This document shows positions 57,354 through 62,272 of a stretch of 64,000 nucleotides of DNA, one piece after another (the first letter of the stretch is position 1; every line of letters begins with the position of its first letter). The stretch covers positions 59,822-123,821 of IMG/VR virus record IMGVR_UViG_3300031857_016023; one strand, given 5' to 3'. Made by a program: the position numbers and the translations under genes. The notes below the pieces were generated by a model, which saw only the letters and a program-made list of their open reading frames with translations, searched no databases and had not been told where the DNA came from. Source of the stretch: a virus.

Positions 57354-57932
57354 TTAATCCCACAATCCTCTATAATACTTACCAAATAAGCGAAAACCAT
57401 TGGCCATTCTAGTTTCGTGTCTTTTTAGGCCTTCTTCATCGTATCCATTGATGAAAAACTGTTCATCTGTATCATTAACCAATTGTTCAAAGGTCCAAAT
57501 CATTTCATTCATTACCCAATCCCAGCGAGCAGAACCTAAATCTTCAAATTGTTTATCCTGGTACCAATCGAAATACAATTGATTGTCATATTCTTCATGT
57601 GTAATGCTACGGAGTTCAACAGGAACATCCTCTAAATCGACAAGATGATACCCATGATTTGTTTCTTTGAGTTGCTTAAGCATTGGCAGAATAATATATG
57701 ACAATGTATGATCCATTGACCAAGTATCCCATTTATCAATCTTTACATAATTAATTCTTGGGTGAACAATTTCTAAAAACTTAAAAAGGGCCTGGCAAAA
57801 TGGTTCTAGTATATTTGCTAGTCTATCAATCTTTGGTTCATCATAATCAATTTCACGCCAAAAGAAAACCTTCTCCAAGATTGTGTAAGGAGAAAGCCAA
57901 TGATTACGGTAATTACTAAGATAAACTTTCAT
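57354..57932 (-). CDS. Conserved phage protein, function unknown
   Basis: A 192-residue protein rich in Trp and acidic residues: VYLSNYRNHWLSPYTILEKV, DKWDTWSMDHTLSYIILPML, YDNQLYFDWYQDKQFEDLGS and ARWDWVMNEMIWTFEQLV. I recall homologues in T4-like marine phages and other large phages, with no established role. It overlaps the end of the ketosynthase gene by 17 bases and so is cotranscribed with the acyl module, though its wide distribution suggests an independent function. Confidence 0.7.
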   Translation of the reverse strand: MKVYLSNYRNHWLSPYTILEKVFFWREIDYDEPKIDRLANILEPFCQALFKFLEIVHPRINYVKIDKWDTWSMDHTLSYIILPMLKQLKETNHGYHLVDLEDVPVELRSITHEEYDNQLYFDWYQDKQFEDLGSARWDWVMNEMIWTFEQLVNDTDEQFFINGYDEEGLKRHETRMANGFRLFGKYYRGLWD

Positions 57933-59115
57933 TATATTTTCCCATAATTAAAACAACATTACTTCCACCAAAAGCAAAAGAGTTATTTAAACACACATCT
58001 TGCTTCTTGTCAACCACTTCTCTAGGCAAATATGTGCCTTCAGGTACTTTATCATCTTGTTCACCTAAATGCCAATTCGGTATGACTTTATCTTCTTGTA
58101 AAACAGCAATACAACCCATCGATTCAATAATACCTGAAGCACCGAGTGTGTGACCATGTAATGCTTTTGTTGATGTGATTGGTATATCTTTCAGTTCATC
58201 ACCAAAAACATTTTTAATAGCTTGCAATTCAACCATATCGCCGGTTGGTGTTGCAGTTCCATGAGCAGAGATAAATGTCACTTTGCGGCCGTTAAGTTTA
58301 TCATAAGCTTTTTGTATCGCTCTCATTTCACCTTCAATACTTGGCTTAGTCATTGATTCTGTACCCCAAGAAGTACCATAACCAAGTATCTCACAATATA
58401 TCTTGGCGCCTCGAGCCTTGGCGTGTTCCAGTTCTTCTAAAAAGAATACAGCACAACCTTCTGCGACAACAACACCAGTTCTATCTTTTGAAAATGGCCT
58501 GCAAGCTTTTGGTCCTTCATCTTTAGAAGAAATAGCTCGCATTCCGTGCCATGTGGTAATACCATAATCATTTACTGACGATTCTGTTCCGCCCACAATC
58601 ATTCCATCACAATCACCACGAACAATCTTTTCATATGCTTCACCAAGAGCAAGTGTTGAAGATGAACAAGCTGTGTTGTAAGTAAAATTTGGTCCATGTA
58701 TATCTTCTTTCAATGCAATAAAGCATGCAGGAGAATTAGGACAAATATTAACCAAGGTATTTGGCCTTGATCGACCATTGTTCAAATATTCTGGAAAAGA
58801 ATTCTCAATTGTATAGCTGCCACAAAAACCAACACCAAAGAAAATGCCATCAACATCTTCTTTTGTTATACCAGCATCTTCTTTACATTTAAGATAAGAA
58901 TACCAAGCAAAGCGTGATATTCTATCGGTGATTGTTTGATCGAGCGGTGCAATCTGTGAATCAATATCAAATTCTACACGACCAAGATTTGCTTTGATGT
59001 TTTCATAATAACGAATGCCTGAGCGGCCAGAAAACATAGCATCTTTTACTTCATCATATGATATACCGATTGGTGTAACACAACCAATCCCGGTCACAAC
59101 TACTCGTCTTTTCAT
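57916..59115 (-). CDS. fabF: Beta-ketoacyl-ACP synthase (FabF/KAS II type)
   Basis: A 399-residue complete ketosynthase. It starts RRVVVTGIGCVTPIG; the nucleophile is C150 in NTACSSS; H285 lies in SAHGTATPTGD; K317 and H322 lie in KALHGHTLGASG; the C terminus has NNSFAFGGSNVVLIM. All catalytic residues of elongating condensing enzymes (Cys-His-His and Lys) are present. It extends acyl-ACP with malonyl-ACP. It overlaps the desaturase by four bases; ACP and holo-ACP synthase lie just upstream. Slightly shorter than bacterial FabF (about 412). A polyketide-type ketosynthase is less likely, as no partner domains are seen. Confidence 0.93.
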   Translation of the reverse strand: MKRRVVVTGIGCVTPIGISYDEVKDAMFSGRSGIRYYENIKANLGRVEFDIDSQIAPLDQTITDRISRFAWYSYLKCKEDAGITKEDVDGIFFGVGFCGSYTIENSFPEYLNNGRSRPNTLVNICPNSPACFIALKEDIHGPNFTYNTACSSSTLALGEAYEKIVRGDCDGMIVGGTESSVNDYGITTWHGMRAISSKDEGPKACRPFSKDRTGVVVAEGCAVFFLEELEHAKARGAKIYCEILGYGTSWGTESMTKPSIEGEMRAIQKAYDKLNGRKVTFISAHGTATPTGDMVELQAIKNVFGDELKDIPITSTKALHGHTLGASGIIESMGCIAVLQEDKVIPNWHLGEQDDKVPEGTYLPREVVDKKQDVCLNNSFAFGGSNVVLIMGKYNESLS

Positions 59116-59879
59116 TTATCAGTTTTAATTAATCTAATCATTTGAGCAGGAATATCAAACTCCCACCATTTCTCTCTTTGATTCCAGAGATAACCTTTAT
59201 TGTGATGATTGTTATGCCAATCGCCAAAAAATACGCCAGTAATAAAATCATTCCGTGATGAATCTTGCGTTTCGTGATTGCGATATGAAAATGGCAACTT
59301 AGTATGATTGATAATGTTAATCACACAATATTCACAGAACATAAACAAACTAGCAACATTATACATCAATGCTAAACGAATGTCAATCAAAGCTAATACT
59401 ACCCAAAATGCAATAACAATTAAAACATAGTAATTATGTGATCTCATAATCCATGGATCATTATTTAAATTACGCATTACACTTACAGGAACGTGTTTTA
59501 AGTTCCAACGAAAAAATGCCACATTCCAACGACCAACTAAATCTAAATTCGTTGGATCTTTATCCGTATCAGAATACATATGATGCGTTCTGTGTGCCAT
59601 AGCATAACCATACGGAGAACCAGCAGATGCTAGTGGCGAAAACATGGCCATAAAAATATGCCAAAATTTATTTGTTTGAAATGACTTATGTGAAAAATAA
59701 CGGTGTAAAGCTACGTTATGAAAGAAATGGTTAAAGAAGAAAAACATAATAAACGCATACAGAATATAACTATATTGCGCTGTCACCACAAAATAAATTG
59801 AACACAAGATACCAAGAACAACTTGTGTTAAAATAACCTTCTGTGAATTTTCTGAAGTTCCTCTAAACGGATGTGCCAT
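59112..59879 (-). CDS. Membrane fatty-acid desaturase
   Basis: The ATG at 59879 is chosen since it follows AAGG and lies one base beyond the ACP stop; a start at 59963 would overlap ACP by 83 bases. The 255-residue protein has four or so hydrophobic segments and the three histidine boxes of di-iron desaturases: HRYFSHKSF, HRTHHMYSD and WHNNHHNKG. This is the acyl-CoA/acyl-lipid Delta9 group. It would introduce a double bond into a fatty acyl chain using O2 and host electron carriers. Part of the AcpS-ACP-desaturase-KAS operon. Confidence 0.93.
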   Translation of the reverse strand: MAHPFRGTSENSQKVILTQVVLGILCSIYFVVTAQYSYILYAFIMFFFFNHFFHNVALHRYFSHKSFQTNKFWHIFMAMFSPLASAGSPYGYAMAHRTHHMYSDTDKDPTNLDLVGRWNVAFFRWNLKHVPVSVMRNLNNDPWIMRSHNYYVLIVIAFWVVLALIDIRLALMYNVASLFMFCEYCVINIINHTKLPFSYRNHETQDSSRNDFITGVFFGDWHNNHHNKGYLWNQREKWWEFDIPAQMIRLIKTDK

Positions 59880-59880
59880 A

Positions 59881-60144
59881 TTAAGTGCCTTGTTTTTTGT
59901 TAATTGCTTCCTCAAACATATTAAACAAATCACCAAGTTTTGTTGGAACATTTCCGCCAACATCTTTCACATCAAACATATCTTCAACATCAAAAATGAA
60001 GTTCATAAATTCGATTGAATCTAACTTTTCATTTATTTCAGCAAATTTGTGAACATCAGTATCTTCTGGATAATCAGTCAATTTGATTCCATATTTTGCA
60101 TAGAACAGTTCTTCAATTTTGCTCACTACTTCTTCTCTGGTCAT
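59881..60144 (-). CDS. acpP: Acyl carrier protein
   Basis: An 87-residue acidic helical protein. The phosphopantetheine attachment site is S43 in KLDSIEF (DS-L/I motif), followed by the acidic helix II MNFIFDVEDMFDV. N-terminal helix (EEVVSKIEELFYAKYGIKL) and loop match ACP length. It starts in a four-base ATGA overlap with the holo-ACP synthase gene, so the phage makes a carrier together with its activating enzyme. Confidence 0.92.
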   Translation of the reverse strand: MTREEVVSKIEELFYAKYGIKLTDYPEDTDVHKFAEINEKLDSIEFMNFIFDVEDMFDVKDVGGNVPTKLGDLFNMFEEAINKKQGT

Positions 60145-60473
60145 TTTCTTTCCTTTTTTAAAGCAACAACTGCTACATAATCGCCTTCATGTGTTAGAGA
60201 AATAACATAATCTCCACTCAACTCATTATGTGTATTTACTGCAATTGGATCTTCAGCAATACATTCTACAGTAGGCGCACAAGCTACTTTAAATACTATC
60301 TTTATTTTTCTAGGATTTATTTGTCGACCTTCAGCTTTAGTTAAAGCTTCATAAATTGCCCATATTTTAGCTGCGGTCTTTGGACTATCTAGTTCATGGC
60401 CTAGTTTTTCACCAAGCCTTTTTAAATCAATATTTTCAAATCTGGATATTCGTGTTAGATCAATACCAAGCAT
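60141..60473 (-). CDS. acpS: Holo-ACP synthase (4'-phosphopantetheinyl transferase), compact
   Basis: A 110-residue protein: N-terminal GIDLTRISRFE supplies the metal-binding Asp; IWAIYEALTKAEG contains the second metal ligand Glu, but the first Lys of the usual KEAxxKA is Tyr; the C terminus ISLTHEGDYVAVVAL matches the AcpS ending. It is 10-15 residues shorter than typical AcpS, with the middle helix region reduced. It transfers phosphopantetheine from CoA to the ACP Ser, here very likely S43 of the adjacent ACP. First gene of the acyl operon, seven bases after hairpin 60481-60500. Confidence 0.87.
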   Translation of the reverse strand: MLGIDLTRISRFENIDLKRLGEKLGHELDSPKTAAKIWAIYEALTKAEGRQINPRKIKIVFKVACAPTVECIAEDPIAVNTHNELSGDYVISLTHEGDYVAVVALKKERK

Positions 60474-60506: not shown

Positions 60507-60665
60507 TTACTTCTTTTTTTCGTCTTTCTTCGCTTCAGCTTTTGGTGCATCTTTTTTAGCTTCAGCTTTTGGTGCGTCTTTCTTAGGCTCTTCTTTCTTA
60601 GCAGGTGCCTGTGCGAAAGCGGTTACTGCAAACAGCGATGCTGCGATAAGTGCTACTGACTTCAT
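60507..60665 (-). CDS. Exported Ala/Lys/Pro-rich microprotein
   Basis: A 52-residue protein preceded by AAGGAG, eight bases before the ATG. Residues 1-19 (MKSVALIAASLFAVTAFAQ) are a classic cleavable signal peptide with AFA-Q site. The mature part is a cationic repeat, KKDAPKAEA occurring twice, ending KKDEKKK. It resembles short PAK-rich exported proteins of betaproteobacteria, so it may be host-derived. Function unknown: periplasmic buffering, membrane or wall interaction during lysis are possibilities. It lies between the tmRNA gene and acpS. Confidence 0.75.
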   Translation of the reverse strand: MKSVALIAASLFAVTAFAQAPAKKEEPKKDAPKAEAKKDAPKAEAKKDEKKK

Positions 60666-60686: not shown

Positions 60687-60987
60687 GGTGATTGATTCTG
60701 TTGCCAAGTTCAATCACCGAAAACTCCGGTCAGCGTTTAGGCTGCCAGTGCAAATCTTTCATCGTTTGCATTTACTTATTTGATTATTACGCCTTATCTG
60801 GCGATTCTCCAATTGTCTATTTGCTACGCTGTCGAATCTATTTCAGGCCCATCAGAAGCATACTGCCTACACCCACTTACGATTGGCGTAACCAGCGGTA
60901 GTGCAAAACCTGCTCATGCGTTCTTACAGTATGCTTTTGGTGGACCTGACCGGTACTGCCCCGGTGTCCAACGCATCGTTCAACAAT
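60687..60987 (-). ncRNA. ssrA: Circularly permuted (two-piece) tmRNA
   Basis: Read on the minus strand. Acceptor piece (about 60987-60938): T arm ACCGG-GGCAGTA-CCGGT (60965-60949), acceptor strand CAGGTCC (60948-60942), then encoded ACCA. Intervening segment closed by the inverted repeat AAGCATACTG (60936-60927) / CAGTATGCTT (60865-60856). Coding piece from 60850: GGGCCTG pairs with CAGGTCC and gives the G3-U70 alanine identity pair; AGATTCGACAG is the conserved tmRNA D-loop region. P2 strands AGCGTA (60830-60825) with TGCGTT (60975-60970), and GACAAT (60817-60812) with ATTGTT (60987-60982). Hairpin CGCC/GGCG precedes the tag. Tag at 60769-60740 reads ANDERFALAA, stop TAA at 60739-60737. A 9-bp hairpin (60718-60687) closes the coding piece. 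Ends are approximate. Confidence 0.93.
60740..60769 (-). other. tmRNA proteolysis-tag reading frame
   Basis: Ten codons GCA-AAC-GAT-GAA-AGA-TTT-GCA-CTG-GCA-GCC then TAA (60739-60737). The product is ANDERFALAA. E. coli tmRNA encodes ANDENYALAA; the C-terminal LAA is the ClpXP recognition element. From memory the exact ANDERFALAA form occurs in betaproteobacterial tmRNAs, supporting such a host or gene donor. Confidence 0.93.
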
Positions 60988-61001
60988 CTTCAACGAATTC
61001 T

Positions 61002-61316
61002 TTACTTCTTTGCCTTATACGGTTCCATTTTTGTGCCGGCCGCAATAACGCAATAGTTATCTTCATCAACTTTTTCAACCATAGTCCAACTTTTACTCTG
61101 AGGATTCAGAAATAGAAAAGTAGGATTATACTTCTTTCTATTGCCATCAACTCTGTGGCCTGTGGAGGTAAGAAAAGGCAATTCACCATATTCTTTTACT
61201 GTTCCGCTTATCGTTTTTAAATCAACACATAGTGCCTCAAATAAAACAATTTCACTATCACTAGCCATAGCCAACGCAGGAATAAACAATAGGGTTGACA
61301 GAAATTTGGCAAACAT
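61002..61316 (-). CDS. Exported protein, function unknown
   Basis: A 104-residue protein with an N-terminal signal peptide (FAKFLSTLLFIPALAMAS, probable cleavage after AMA). The mature part is short, with two cysteines (LFEALCVDLKTISGT and VDEDNYCVIAAGTKM) that could form a disulfide, and KKYNPTFLFLNPQSKSWTMV. Ends 15 bases before the tmRNA acceptor piece, so tmRNA may be cotranscribed with it. CCGTATAAGGC near the 3' end could be a -10 element for tmRNA, but no good -35 is seen. Confidence 0.65.
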   Translation of the reverse strand: MFAKFLSTLLFIPALAMASDSEIVLFEALCVDLKTISGTVKEYGELPFLTSTGHRVDGNRKKYNPTFLFLNPQSKSWTMVEKVDEDNYCVIAAGTKMEPYKAKK

Positions 61317-61319
61317 CTA

Positions 61320-61574
61320 TTATTTATTCAGATTGTCTTGTAAAATTTTTGTCAATTTATTGTACAGACCACTCACAACACCGTATTCATCAATTTTAAA
61401 AGTGCCTCTCGAAGCAGCTGCATCTAATAGTGCTATTATAAGTTGTAGGTCATTCAAATTCAGTTCATCTGATTCGGCAGGCGGCTCAGGTTTTTCTTCA
61501 GGAACATCTTCTCGTCCTGGTATTCTTTTTGATTTCACTTCGCCTATACTCCCTGCTTTATTAGCTTCATTCAT
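61320..61574 (-). CDS. Conserved small phage protein, function unknown
   Basis: An 84-residue protein. The first 40 residues are charged and Pro-rich (SKRIPGREDVPEEKPEPPAE), followed by a helical domain (LNLNDLQLIIALLDAAASRG, FKIDEYGVVSGLYNKLTKIL). I recall a family with this helical end (DLQ...ID.A..RG.F...E...VG..Y) in T4-like phages, without function. It has a perfect TATAAATA late element 18-25 bases before the ATG. Confidence 0.7.
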   Translation of the reverse strand: MNEANKAGSIGEVKSKRIPGREDVPEEKPEPPAESDELNLNDLQLIIALLDAAASRGTFKIDEYGVVSGLYNKLTKILQDNLNK

Positions 61575-61591: not shown

Positions 61592-61599
61592 TATTTATA
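61592..61599 (-). promoter_or_regulatory. Exact T4-type late promoter TATAAATA
   Basis: Minus strand TATAAATA at 61599-61592 overlaps the stop codon of the nuclease gene at 61595 and precedes the gene at 61320-61574, with AAGGG in the leader. It is the only exact match to the T4 late consensus that I found before a gene in this half of the window. Confidence 0.6.
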
Positions 61600-62272
61600 T
61601 TGCACCATTATACTTCAAAATATATTGTTGAAGAGGCAAAATATGATCTGCTTTGTTCTCAATGAAAATCAAAGGTATATTTGTATCTTCTACCGCAATG
61701 GCAACCACGATTTGTTTAATTGGCTTGCCTGTTCTTTCCTCAAACATTTCAGCGTATGCCGAGCATTGCATGAAATAGTTTTGTATATATTCTTTTTCTT
61801 TTACTCTTGTTGAAGTTTTCCAATCAACTATTGATAATTCGCCTTCCCATTCGGCGATACAATCACAACGGCCGGCGATCCCTAGTTTATCACTATACAA
61901 CGGTTGTTCAATACCATATATGTCGCCAATATGACTATCGAGAAATGGTTTCACTTTGAGAAATAGCTCTTTAGTGTCAGGCATCATCGTCTGCATTTTC
62001 ATATCAGACATTTCGTTTAAAAGATATTTCTCAACAGCGTTATGCAGTTTGGTACCACGACCAGATGCTGCACGGGAAATACGATTAGCTTCTTGTTCGC
62101 CAACTCTTTGGTGCCATTCATAGATTGCTTTTTTGTTATAATTGGATAGAACGGTTGTGATGGAGGGGTAGGACTTTCCTCCCGGTGTTTTATAAGTCCT
62201 ACCCGATTCTGTTGTTTCGGATTCTAATTCAAAGTCCAATTCACTTAATTTTACATGATTAAAAAATTTCAT
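61595..62272 (-). CDS. PD-(D/E)XK nuclease, Cas4/RecB-like
   Basis: A 225-residue protein. SYPSITTVLSNYNKKAIYEW and GRGTKLHNAVEKYLLNE form the N-terminal helices with the early His/Glu; GIAGRCDCIAEWEGELSIVD and WKTS give the D...(D/E)xK active site (D in GRCDCIA, D and K in VDWKTS). YFMQCSAYAEMFEERTGKPI is motif with Gln-x3-Tyr typical of RecB-family nucleases. No Fe-S cysteines of true Cas4 are seen. Likely an exonuclease in phage recombination or host DNA degradation. Starts on a TAATG-type overlap with the next gene. Confidence 0.88.
   Translation of the reverse strand: MKFFNHVKLSELDFELESETTESGRTYKTPGGKSYPSITTVLSNYNKKAIYEWHQRVGEQEANRISRAASGRGTKLHNAVEKYLLNEMSDMKMQTMMPDTKELFLKVKPFLDSHIGDIYGIEQPLYSDKLGIAGRCDCIAEWEGELSIVDWKTSTRVKEKEYIQNYFMQCSAYAEMFEERTGKPIKQIVVAIAVEDTNIPLIFIENKADHILPLQQYILKYNGAI

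What the first reader, a model, noticed from the sequence alone, without database searches (positions are those of the whole stretch)
60687..60987. Phage-encoded circularly permuted (two-piece) tmRNA
The 335-base gap between an exported-protein gene and a microprotein holds a complete permuted ssrA gene on the minus strand: acceptor piece first, intervening segment, then coding piece. Seen directly: pairing GGGCCTG/CAGGTCC with G3-U70, encoded ACCA, GATTCGAC, P2 pairings, and tag ANDERFALAA followed by TAA. Two-piece tmRNAs are known in alphaproteobacteria, some cyanobacteria and one betaproteobacterial lineage; a few phages carry standard tmRNAs. A two-piece form in a T4-like phage would supply ribosome rescue during infection or redirect tagging.
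Basis: partly seen in the sequence, partly recalled or inferred. Interest (0 to 1): 0.93.

Follow-up and report, generated by a model that had tools for sequence, protein, structure and literature searches.

The report
Phage-borne two-piece ribosome-rescue RNA
This virus of bacteria carries a complete gene for a ribosome-rescue RNA (tmRNA) whose two halves are encoded in swapped order; it is real and conserved in related viruses, but such genes were already known in aquatic phages, so it is a good new example rather than a new kind of thing.

Summary
The minus strand of 61000-60687 holds a full circularly permuted tmRNA gene: Rfam tmRNA_permuted (RF04321) matches end to end at 114 bits (cut-off 47), and beta_tmRNA at 87.7 (cut-off 84). 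Acceptor piece, 87-nt intervening segment, coding piece, G3·U70, encoded CCA and tag ANDERFALAA are all present. Of 50 viral records sharing the neighbouring exonuclease gene, 48 carry the RNA. Across 40 distinct relatives the acceptor and T stems pair in 100% of cells despite changed bases, so the RNA is under selection. SmpB was not found, so the host must supply it. It most likely does ordinary trans-translation during infection.

It is not new in kind. Buchholz et al. 2022 (PMC9004378) described a two-piece tmRNA in the T4-like phage Melnitz, at the same exonuclease/gp33 locus, and counted 53 unique two-piece phage tmRNAs, 50 of them aquatic.

One by-product deserves notice. The T-loop/D-loop "elbow" exists in two linked states (U55 with G18, G55 with A18) without exception in 227 distinct genes, and it switched at least 7 times in this phage clade. 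An intermediate T-loop (UGC) appeared only in phages among the sequences sampled. Function was not tested.

The parts
60687..61000 (-). permuted tmRNA (ssrA) gene, whole precursor from the P2 5' strand to the 3' hairpin
   Evidence: RF04321 60998-60737 114.2 bits; RF01850 61036-60657 87.7 bits; sequence; fold z -5.1
60938..61000 (-). acceptor piece (about 63 nt): P2 5' strand, GGAC, T arm, acceptor 3' strand, A73, CCA
   Evidence: alignment; P2a/P2b 98-100% paired in 40 distinct relatives
60949..60965 (-). T stem-loop ACCGG-GGCAGUA-CCGGU; the loop is of the alphaproteobacterial type (GGCRGUA), not UUCRANY
   Evidence: T stem 100% paired, 8 extra pair types
60942..60948 (-). acceptor stem 3' strand CAGGUCC, U70 of the G3-U70 alanine identity pair at 60944
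   Evidence: 7 of 7 paired in all 40 distinct relatives, third pair invariant
60938..60940 (-). encoded 3' CCA end of the acceptor piece
60851..60937 (-). intervening segment, 87 nt; its ends form a helix (60936-60927 with 60865-60856) continuous with the acceptor stem; expected to be removed by tRNA-processing enzymes
   Evidence: end helix of at least 8 bp in 36 of 40 relatives against 4.75% of shuffles
60687..60850 (-). coding piece (about 164 nt) beginning GGGCCUG, with D-loop AAAUAGAUUCGAC, P2 3' strand, tag frame and 3' hairpin
60737..60769 (-). tag reading frame ANDERFALAA followed by UAA
   Evidence: tags ending in LAA/MAA/IAA in relatives
60687..60718 (-). 3' hairpin GGUGAUUGA-ACUUGGCAACAGAA-UCAAUCACC, matching the 3' stem of the beta_tmRNA model
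   Evidence: (75% paired against 53% shuffled)
61595..62272 (-). PD-(D/E)XK exonuclease gene (phrog_298), marker of the locus
61320..61574 (-). 84-aa protein of unknown family between the exonuclease and the tmRNA (in Melnitz and HTVC008M the tmRNA lies between the exonuclease and the late-transcription coactivator)
61002..61316 (-). 104-aa protein with a signal-peptide-like start; its stop codon lies at the 5' edge of the tmRNA gene
60507..60665 (-). 52-aa exported, Lys/Ala-rich microprotein just downstream

Best explanation
It is a functional, circularly permuted ssrA gene of a T4-like (Kyanoviridae-like) phage. Shown: gene architecture, conserved pairing, alanine identity pair, tag with ALAA, conservation in the phage clade at one locus, no SmpB match in the phage record. 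Inferred: one transcript is folded so that the acceptor stem and the intervening-segment helix stack; RNase P and the tRNA 3' processing machinery of the host cut out the intervening segment; the acceptor piece and coding piece stay base-paired; host AlaRS charges it, host SmpB and EF-Tu bring it to ribosomes stalled on broken mRNAs, which are probably plentiful in infected cells; the nascent chain gets ANDERFALAA and goes to host ClpXP or related proteases. The benefit is probably sustained ribosome recycling and protein quality control when host transcription is shut down. By sequence it belongs with phage and betaproteobacterial-type permuted tmRNAs, but in this branch it has acquired the alpha-type T-loop/D-loop elbow.
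For: RF04321 and RF01850 full-length hits. 48 of 50 virus records with the neighbouring exonuclease carry RF04321 above cut-off. In 40 distinct relatives the acceptor stem and T stem pair in 100% of cells against 80% and 74% in column shuffles, with 7 and 8 extra pair types; P2a/P2b 98-100%; intervening-segment end helix of 8 bp or more in 36 of 40. G3-U70 invariant, A73 and CCA encoded. Tags mostly keep A-N-D at the start and LAA/MAA/IAA at the end while the middle varies. Strong sigma-70 sites (11-12 of 12) directly upstream in 23% of relatives against 0.3% of shuffles, some overlapping T4-late TATAAATA. Melnitz has its annotated SsrA between the PDDEXK nuclease and the late-transcription coactivator, i.e. 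the same locus. With the elbow masked, the window's RNA falls with phage and beta-type genes and away from 40 alpha-type genes, with ultrafast bootstraps of 90-100 on several separating branches. Two-piece tmRNA works in Caulobacter (Keiler et al. 2000, as cited in PMC3985003).
Against: No RNA data: transcription, cleavage into two pieces, aminoacylation and tagging are not shown. No dedicated promoter stands out in the window itself (one search finds hardly more promoter-like sites than shuffles), so it would need operon read-through. P2c and the P3-like helix pair in only 58-65% of cells, partly an alignment limit. Default ARAGORN misses it. A phage tmRNA could be redundant with the host's.
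Confidence: 0.9

Rival explanations
1. A decayed or captured host fragment: a remnant of a bacterial ssrA gene picked up by recombination, without function in the phage.
For: Temperate phages often integrate in ssrA and carry fragments (literature quoted in PMC9004378); default ARAGORN fails on it.
Against: Complete gene, full-length model match; 48 of 50 related records keep it near the exonuclease; 100% preserved acceptor and T stems with compensating changes over divergence down to about 56% exonuclease identity. It is a T4-like phage, not an ssrA-integrating temperate phage.
Confidence: 0.03
2. A decoy or competitor: the phage RNA binds SmpB or ribosomes to inhibit or retune the host's trans-translation rather than to carry it out, as proposed for the tag-less tmRNA of mycobacteriophage DS6A.
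For: A tRNA-like-domain-only tmRNA like that of phage DS6A strongly inhibits endogenous tmRNA (PMC4131195; PMC11915505). The elbow of this branch differs from canonical.
Against: Tag frame, stop codon and ALAA are intact here and varied but intact in relatives; a decoy would not need a tag.
Confidence: 0.04
3. A redirected tagger: the phage tmRNA tags particular host or phage proteins for recycling of amino acids or for a different protease.
For: Suggested for Melnitz by its authors (PMC9004378).
Against: ANDERFALAA is a bacterial tag: codon-degenerate matches occur in 2 of 321 genomes of one proteobacterial class, and two bacterial permuted genes, L508 and L510, encode it too (sequences printed); the degron end is unchanged, so the same proteases would read it.
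Confidence: 0.1

Closest known systems
Two-piece tmRNA of Methylophilales phage Melnitz (MZ577098, Kyanoviridae; Buchholz et al. 2022, PMC9004378)
   Same: Permuted ssrA in a T4-like aquatic phage, between the PDDEXK exonuclease and late-transcription genes; GGCAGUA T-loop with A18 in the D-loop; tag ending ALAA.
   Different: The Melnitz RNA is alpha-type by Rfam (RF01849 106.7 bits) with a glutamine riboswitch downstream; the window's is best matched by beta_tmRNA, has tag ANDERFALAA instead of ANDNYVPVDYALAA, an 87-nt against a 142-nt intervening segment, and no Rfam riboswitch hit.
Betaproteobacterial-type permuted tmRNA (Rfam RF01850)
   Same: Full-length match above the gathering score; same tag ANDERFALAA in some bacterial members (L508, L510); relatives in the phage clade reach 185 bits.
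   Different: T-loop GGCAGUA and D-loop AG instead of UUCGAUU and GG; only just over cut-off (87.7 against 84).
Alphaproteobacterial permuted tmRNA (Rfam RF01849)
   Same: The elbow: 39 of 39 genes read in the alpha/gamma genome sample have GGCAGUA, GGCGGUA or (once) GGCAGUG, all with A18.
   Different: With the elbow masked, the window's RNA groups away from all 40 alpha-type sequences.
Permuted tmRNA hits in Pelagibacter phage HTVC008M and Synechococcus phage BUCT-ZZ01
   Same: RF04321 hits over cut-off (90.6 and 111.9 bits); in HTVC008M at the same exonuclease/late-promoter-factor locus.
   Different: UGC-type and UUC-type elbows respectively; no tmRNA feature appears in the annotated stretch of either record.

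Membership tests
permuted (two-piece) tmRNA | acceptor piece encoded 5' of the coding piece, with an intervening segment | tested here: met
   RF04321 full-length, 114.2 bits
permuted (two-piece) tmRNA | tRNA-like domain: 7-bp acceptor stem joining the two pieces, T arm, D-loop without D stem, encoded CCA | tested here: met
permuted (two-piece) tmRNA | G3-U70 alanine identity pair | tested here: met
   (invariant in 40 distinct relatives)
permuted (two-piece) tmRNA | tag frame opening at an Ala resume codon and ending in a degradation signal | tested here: met
   ANDERFALAA*
canonical tRNA-like T-loop (not defining for the permuted kind) | UUCRANY T-loop | tested here: not met
   GGCAGUA; the alpha lineage of permuted tmRNA itself has GGCRGUA, so this does not exclude membership
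permuted (two-piece) tmRNA | pseudoknots PK1/PK2 of the coding piece | tested here: inconclusive
   P3-like helix only 58% paired on a MAFFT alignment; pseudoknots not modelled
permuted (two-piece) tmRNA | processing into two RNAs, alanylation, SmpB binding, tagging | not testable with these tools
   needs RNA and biochemistry
beta lineage (RF01850) | score over the curated cut-off | tested here: met
   87.7 against 84; marginal. The close relatives L300 and L302 do not reach it and are listed as alpha_tmRNA at 73.5 and 77.4 bits
complete phage-encoded trans-translation system | smpB gene in the phage | tested here: not met
   PF01668: 0 of 12 virus records including G000, control rings in 10 of 14 genomes

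The most novel reading that the evidence does not exclude
Phage permuted tmRNAs record, and perhaps exploit, a stepwise rewiring of the tRNA-like elbow: first the 18-55 contact is exchanged (G18/U55 to A18/G55, T-loop UGC), then the 54-58 contact (U54/A58 to G54/G58, T-loop GGC), turning a beta-type tmRNA into one with an alpha-type elbow. The intermediate was seen only in phages here, and the switches may go with changes of host ribosome, SmpB or modification enzymes.
Probability: 0.35. Interest if true: 0.55.

Novelty: new member of a known kind. Interest (0 to 1): 0.36.

Why it matters
It confirms that a large T4-like phage clade keeps its own two-piece tmRNA as a near-universal gene beside the exonuclease (48 of 50 records), where the earlier study called it common but not defining in the Melnitz group. 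That makes ribosome rescue during infection a testable need of these phages. The clade also offers natural replicates of a co-ordinated change in the tRNA elbow, useful for asking what SmpB and the ribosome require of the T-loop.

Tried and rejected
Idea that ARAGORN misses the gene because of the GGCAGUA T-loop: rejected as a full explanation, since ARAGORN finds 29 of 32 alpha/gamma-sample genes and 95 of 102 pattern-selected bacterial genes with that loop, but only 5 of 10 in this phage clade. Idea that GGCAGUA is degenerate or phage-specific: rejected, it is standard in alphaproteobacteria. Host assignment by the ketoacyl synthase: best bit score 280 (41% identity) in the order of G284 against 212 in the order of a SAR11 genome; too distant from either to name a host. 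Host by tag motif: 2 of 321 against 0 of 240 genomes; too rare to decide. No tRNA genes in the record to help. The phages-collection blastn gave one hit only, BUCT-ZZ01. A literature search for the alpha T-loop found nothing relevant.

Full report
WHAT WAS CLAIMED AND WHAT IS THERE. It is there. cmscan of the window against Rfam 15 reports only two hits above cut-off, both at this place and strand: tmRNA_permuted RF04321 60998-60737 (114.2 bits, cut-off 47, model 1-213/213) and beta_tmRNA RF01850 61036-60657 (87.7 bits, cut-off 84, model 1-331/331). ARAGORN at its default threshold is silent; at 50% it lists the permuted gene with tag ANDERFALAA among weaker alternatives.

ANATOMY (minus strand, read). 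P2 5' strand about 61000-60970; GGAC 60969-60966; T arm 60965-60949 with loop GGCAGUA; acceptor 3' strand CAGGUCC 60948-60942; A73 60941; CCA 60940-60938; intervening segment 60937-60851 (87 nt) whose ends AAGCAUACUG/CAGUAUGCUU form a 10-bp helix that continues the acceptor stem; acceptor 5' strand GGGCCUG 60850-60844; D-loop AAAUAGAUUCGAC ending at 60831; tag frame 60769-60737, A-N-D-E-R-F-A-L-A-A-stop; 3' hairpin 60718-60687. The 322-nt precursor folds with z = -5.1.

CONTEXT. The record is a virus contig of 123,821 bp, of which the window is 59822-123821. The baseplate wedge protein matches T4-like phages, with Kyanoviridae such as BUCT-ZZ01, HTVC008M and Melnitz among the best, at about 40% identity (taxonomy). 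Upstream on the same strand lie a PD-(D/E)XK exonuclease (61595-62272, phrog_298), an 84-aa and a 104-aa protein; downstream a 52-aa exported microprotein, then an AcpS-like gene, a fatty acid desaturase and a ketoacyl synthase. In Melnitz the annotated SsrA lies between the PDDEXK nuclease and the late-transcription coactivator; HTVC008M has an RF04321 hit without annotation between its exonuclease and late promoter factor. So the tmRNA sits in the same neighbourhood in all three. No SmpB was detected in the phage or 11 related records; no tRNA genes in the rest of the record.

CONSERVATION. Fifty virus records that share the exonuclease were searched whole: 48 carry RF04321 above cut-off, although many are short fragments. 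From 40 distinct relatives I aligned the two pieces and counted pairs: acceptor stem 100% paired (shuffled mean 80%), T stem 100% (74%), P2a 98%, P2b 100%, P2d 89% (70%), 3' hairpin 75% (53%), with 7 and 8 extra pair types in the acceptor and T stems; the third acceptor pair, G3-U70, never changes. The intervening segment varies from 25 to 196 nt, but its ends form a helix of 8 bp or more in 36 of 40 relatives against 4.75% of shuffles. This is purifying selection on a folded RNA. Shuffles ignore relatedness, so the numbers are not probabilities, but fully paired stems with up to 5 pair types at one position are hard to get otherwise. About a quarter of relatives have a near-perfect sigma-70 promoter just upstream, several overlapping a T4-late TATAAATA; the window itself has neither.

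THE ELBOW. The T-loop here is GGCAGUA. In 227 distinct permuted genes read here, T-loop position 55 and the D-loop base before the conserved G (18-like) take only two joint states, G55 with A18 (204) and U55 with G18 (23), and positions 54/58 only G/G (183) and U/A (44). The totals are weighted by two sets chosen for GGCAGUA, but the unselected sets agree: clade 21 distinct G-A and 15 U-G, alpha/gamma genomes 27 G-A, the order of G284 4 U-G and 1 G-A. On the exonuclease protein tree of 49 phages both positions change at least 7 times and always agree at the tips. An intermediate T-loop, UGC with A18 and canonical U54/A58, is common in phages (24 clade members, plus HTVC008M) and absent from the bacterial genes read here; the bacterial sample with U55 is small (5 genes). 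Building the tmRNA tree with the elbow masked puts the window's RNA, with a UGC-type neighbour (support 98), among phage and beta-type genes and apart from all 40 alpha-type genes (several separating branches at 90-100). The simplest reading is convergent, stepwise change within phage tmRNAs; replacement of whole tmRNA genes by recombination would also give linked states and is not excluded for every switch. Close relatives L300 and L302 are listed by Rfam under alpha_tmRNA because no beta match reaches the beta cut-off, so the lineage label of this branch is weak.

MECHANISM. Established for this family (my knowledge, and PMC3985003): the permuted precursor is probably cut by RNase P and tRNase Z into acceptor and coding pieces that stay paired; AlaRS charges it; SmpB-tmRNA enters stalled ribosomes; the tag leads to proteolysis, with C-terminal ALAA read by ClpXP/ClpAP. 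The sequence requirements tested for this are met here; none of the steps was observed. Since no SmpB was found in the phage, it must depend on the host for it and presumably for processing enzymes.

KNOWN OR NEW. Buchholz et al. 2022 (PMC9004378) found a two-piece tmRNA in Melnitz, counted 133 unique tmRNA structures in 402 phages, 53 of them two-piece and 50 of these aquatic, and found permuted tmRNA in 17 of 47 related contigs. The 2025 tmRNA database lists 79 phage sequences (PMC11915505). The present gene is therefore a new member of a known kind. What I add: near-universal presence in this clade, a conserved intervening-segment helix, hits without annotation in HTVC008M and BUCT-ZZ01, and the linked elbow states. 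I found no paper on the elbow pattern in the library held, but the GGCAGUA form is found by ARAGORN in most genes, so the alpha loop itself is not news.

Noticed in passing
window 57916-60473 (-): Lipid-type gene cluster in a T4-like phage: ketoacyl synthase (57916-59115), fatty acid desaturase (59112-59963) and an AcpS-like 4'-phosphopantetheinyl transferase (60141-60473, just under the Pfam cut-off), next to the tmRNA; possibly phage-directed fatty acid synthesis.
   Followed up: partly
L434 (Pelagibacter phage HTVC008M, 145161-145370) and L433 (BUCT-ZZ01, 116952-117248): Permuted tmRNA hits over cut-off; no tmRNA feature is listed in the annotated stretches examined around them.
   Followed up: partly
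L227, L228, L233, L234, L260, L262-L265, about 40 nt upstream of GGAC: Sigma-70 promoters of 10-12 of 12 overlapping a T4-late TATAAATA box directly before the tmRNA, suggesting expression both by unmodified host RNA polymerase and by the late phage machinery.
   Followed up: partly
L444, L446, L512: Alpha-type permuted tmRNA in genomes sampled from a class or order where strong permuted hits are rare; transfer or contig misbinning.
   Followed up: no
L148, L118, L126, L170, L201 and L132 (viral contigs): Phage permuted tmRNAs with unusually long tags of about 20-27 residues (for example ANAFKPEVTVPMSVFADQELVAA).
   Followed up: no
L255 (G041): A virus record with a second, weak match to the tRNA-like part of the permuted model besides the full gene.
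   Followed up: no
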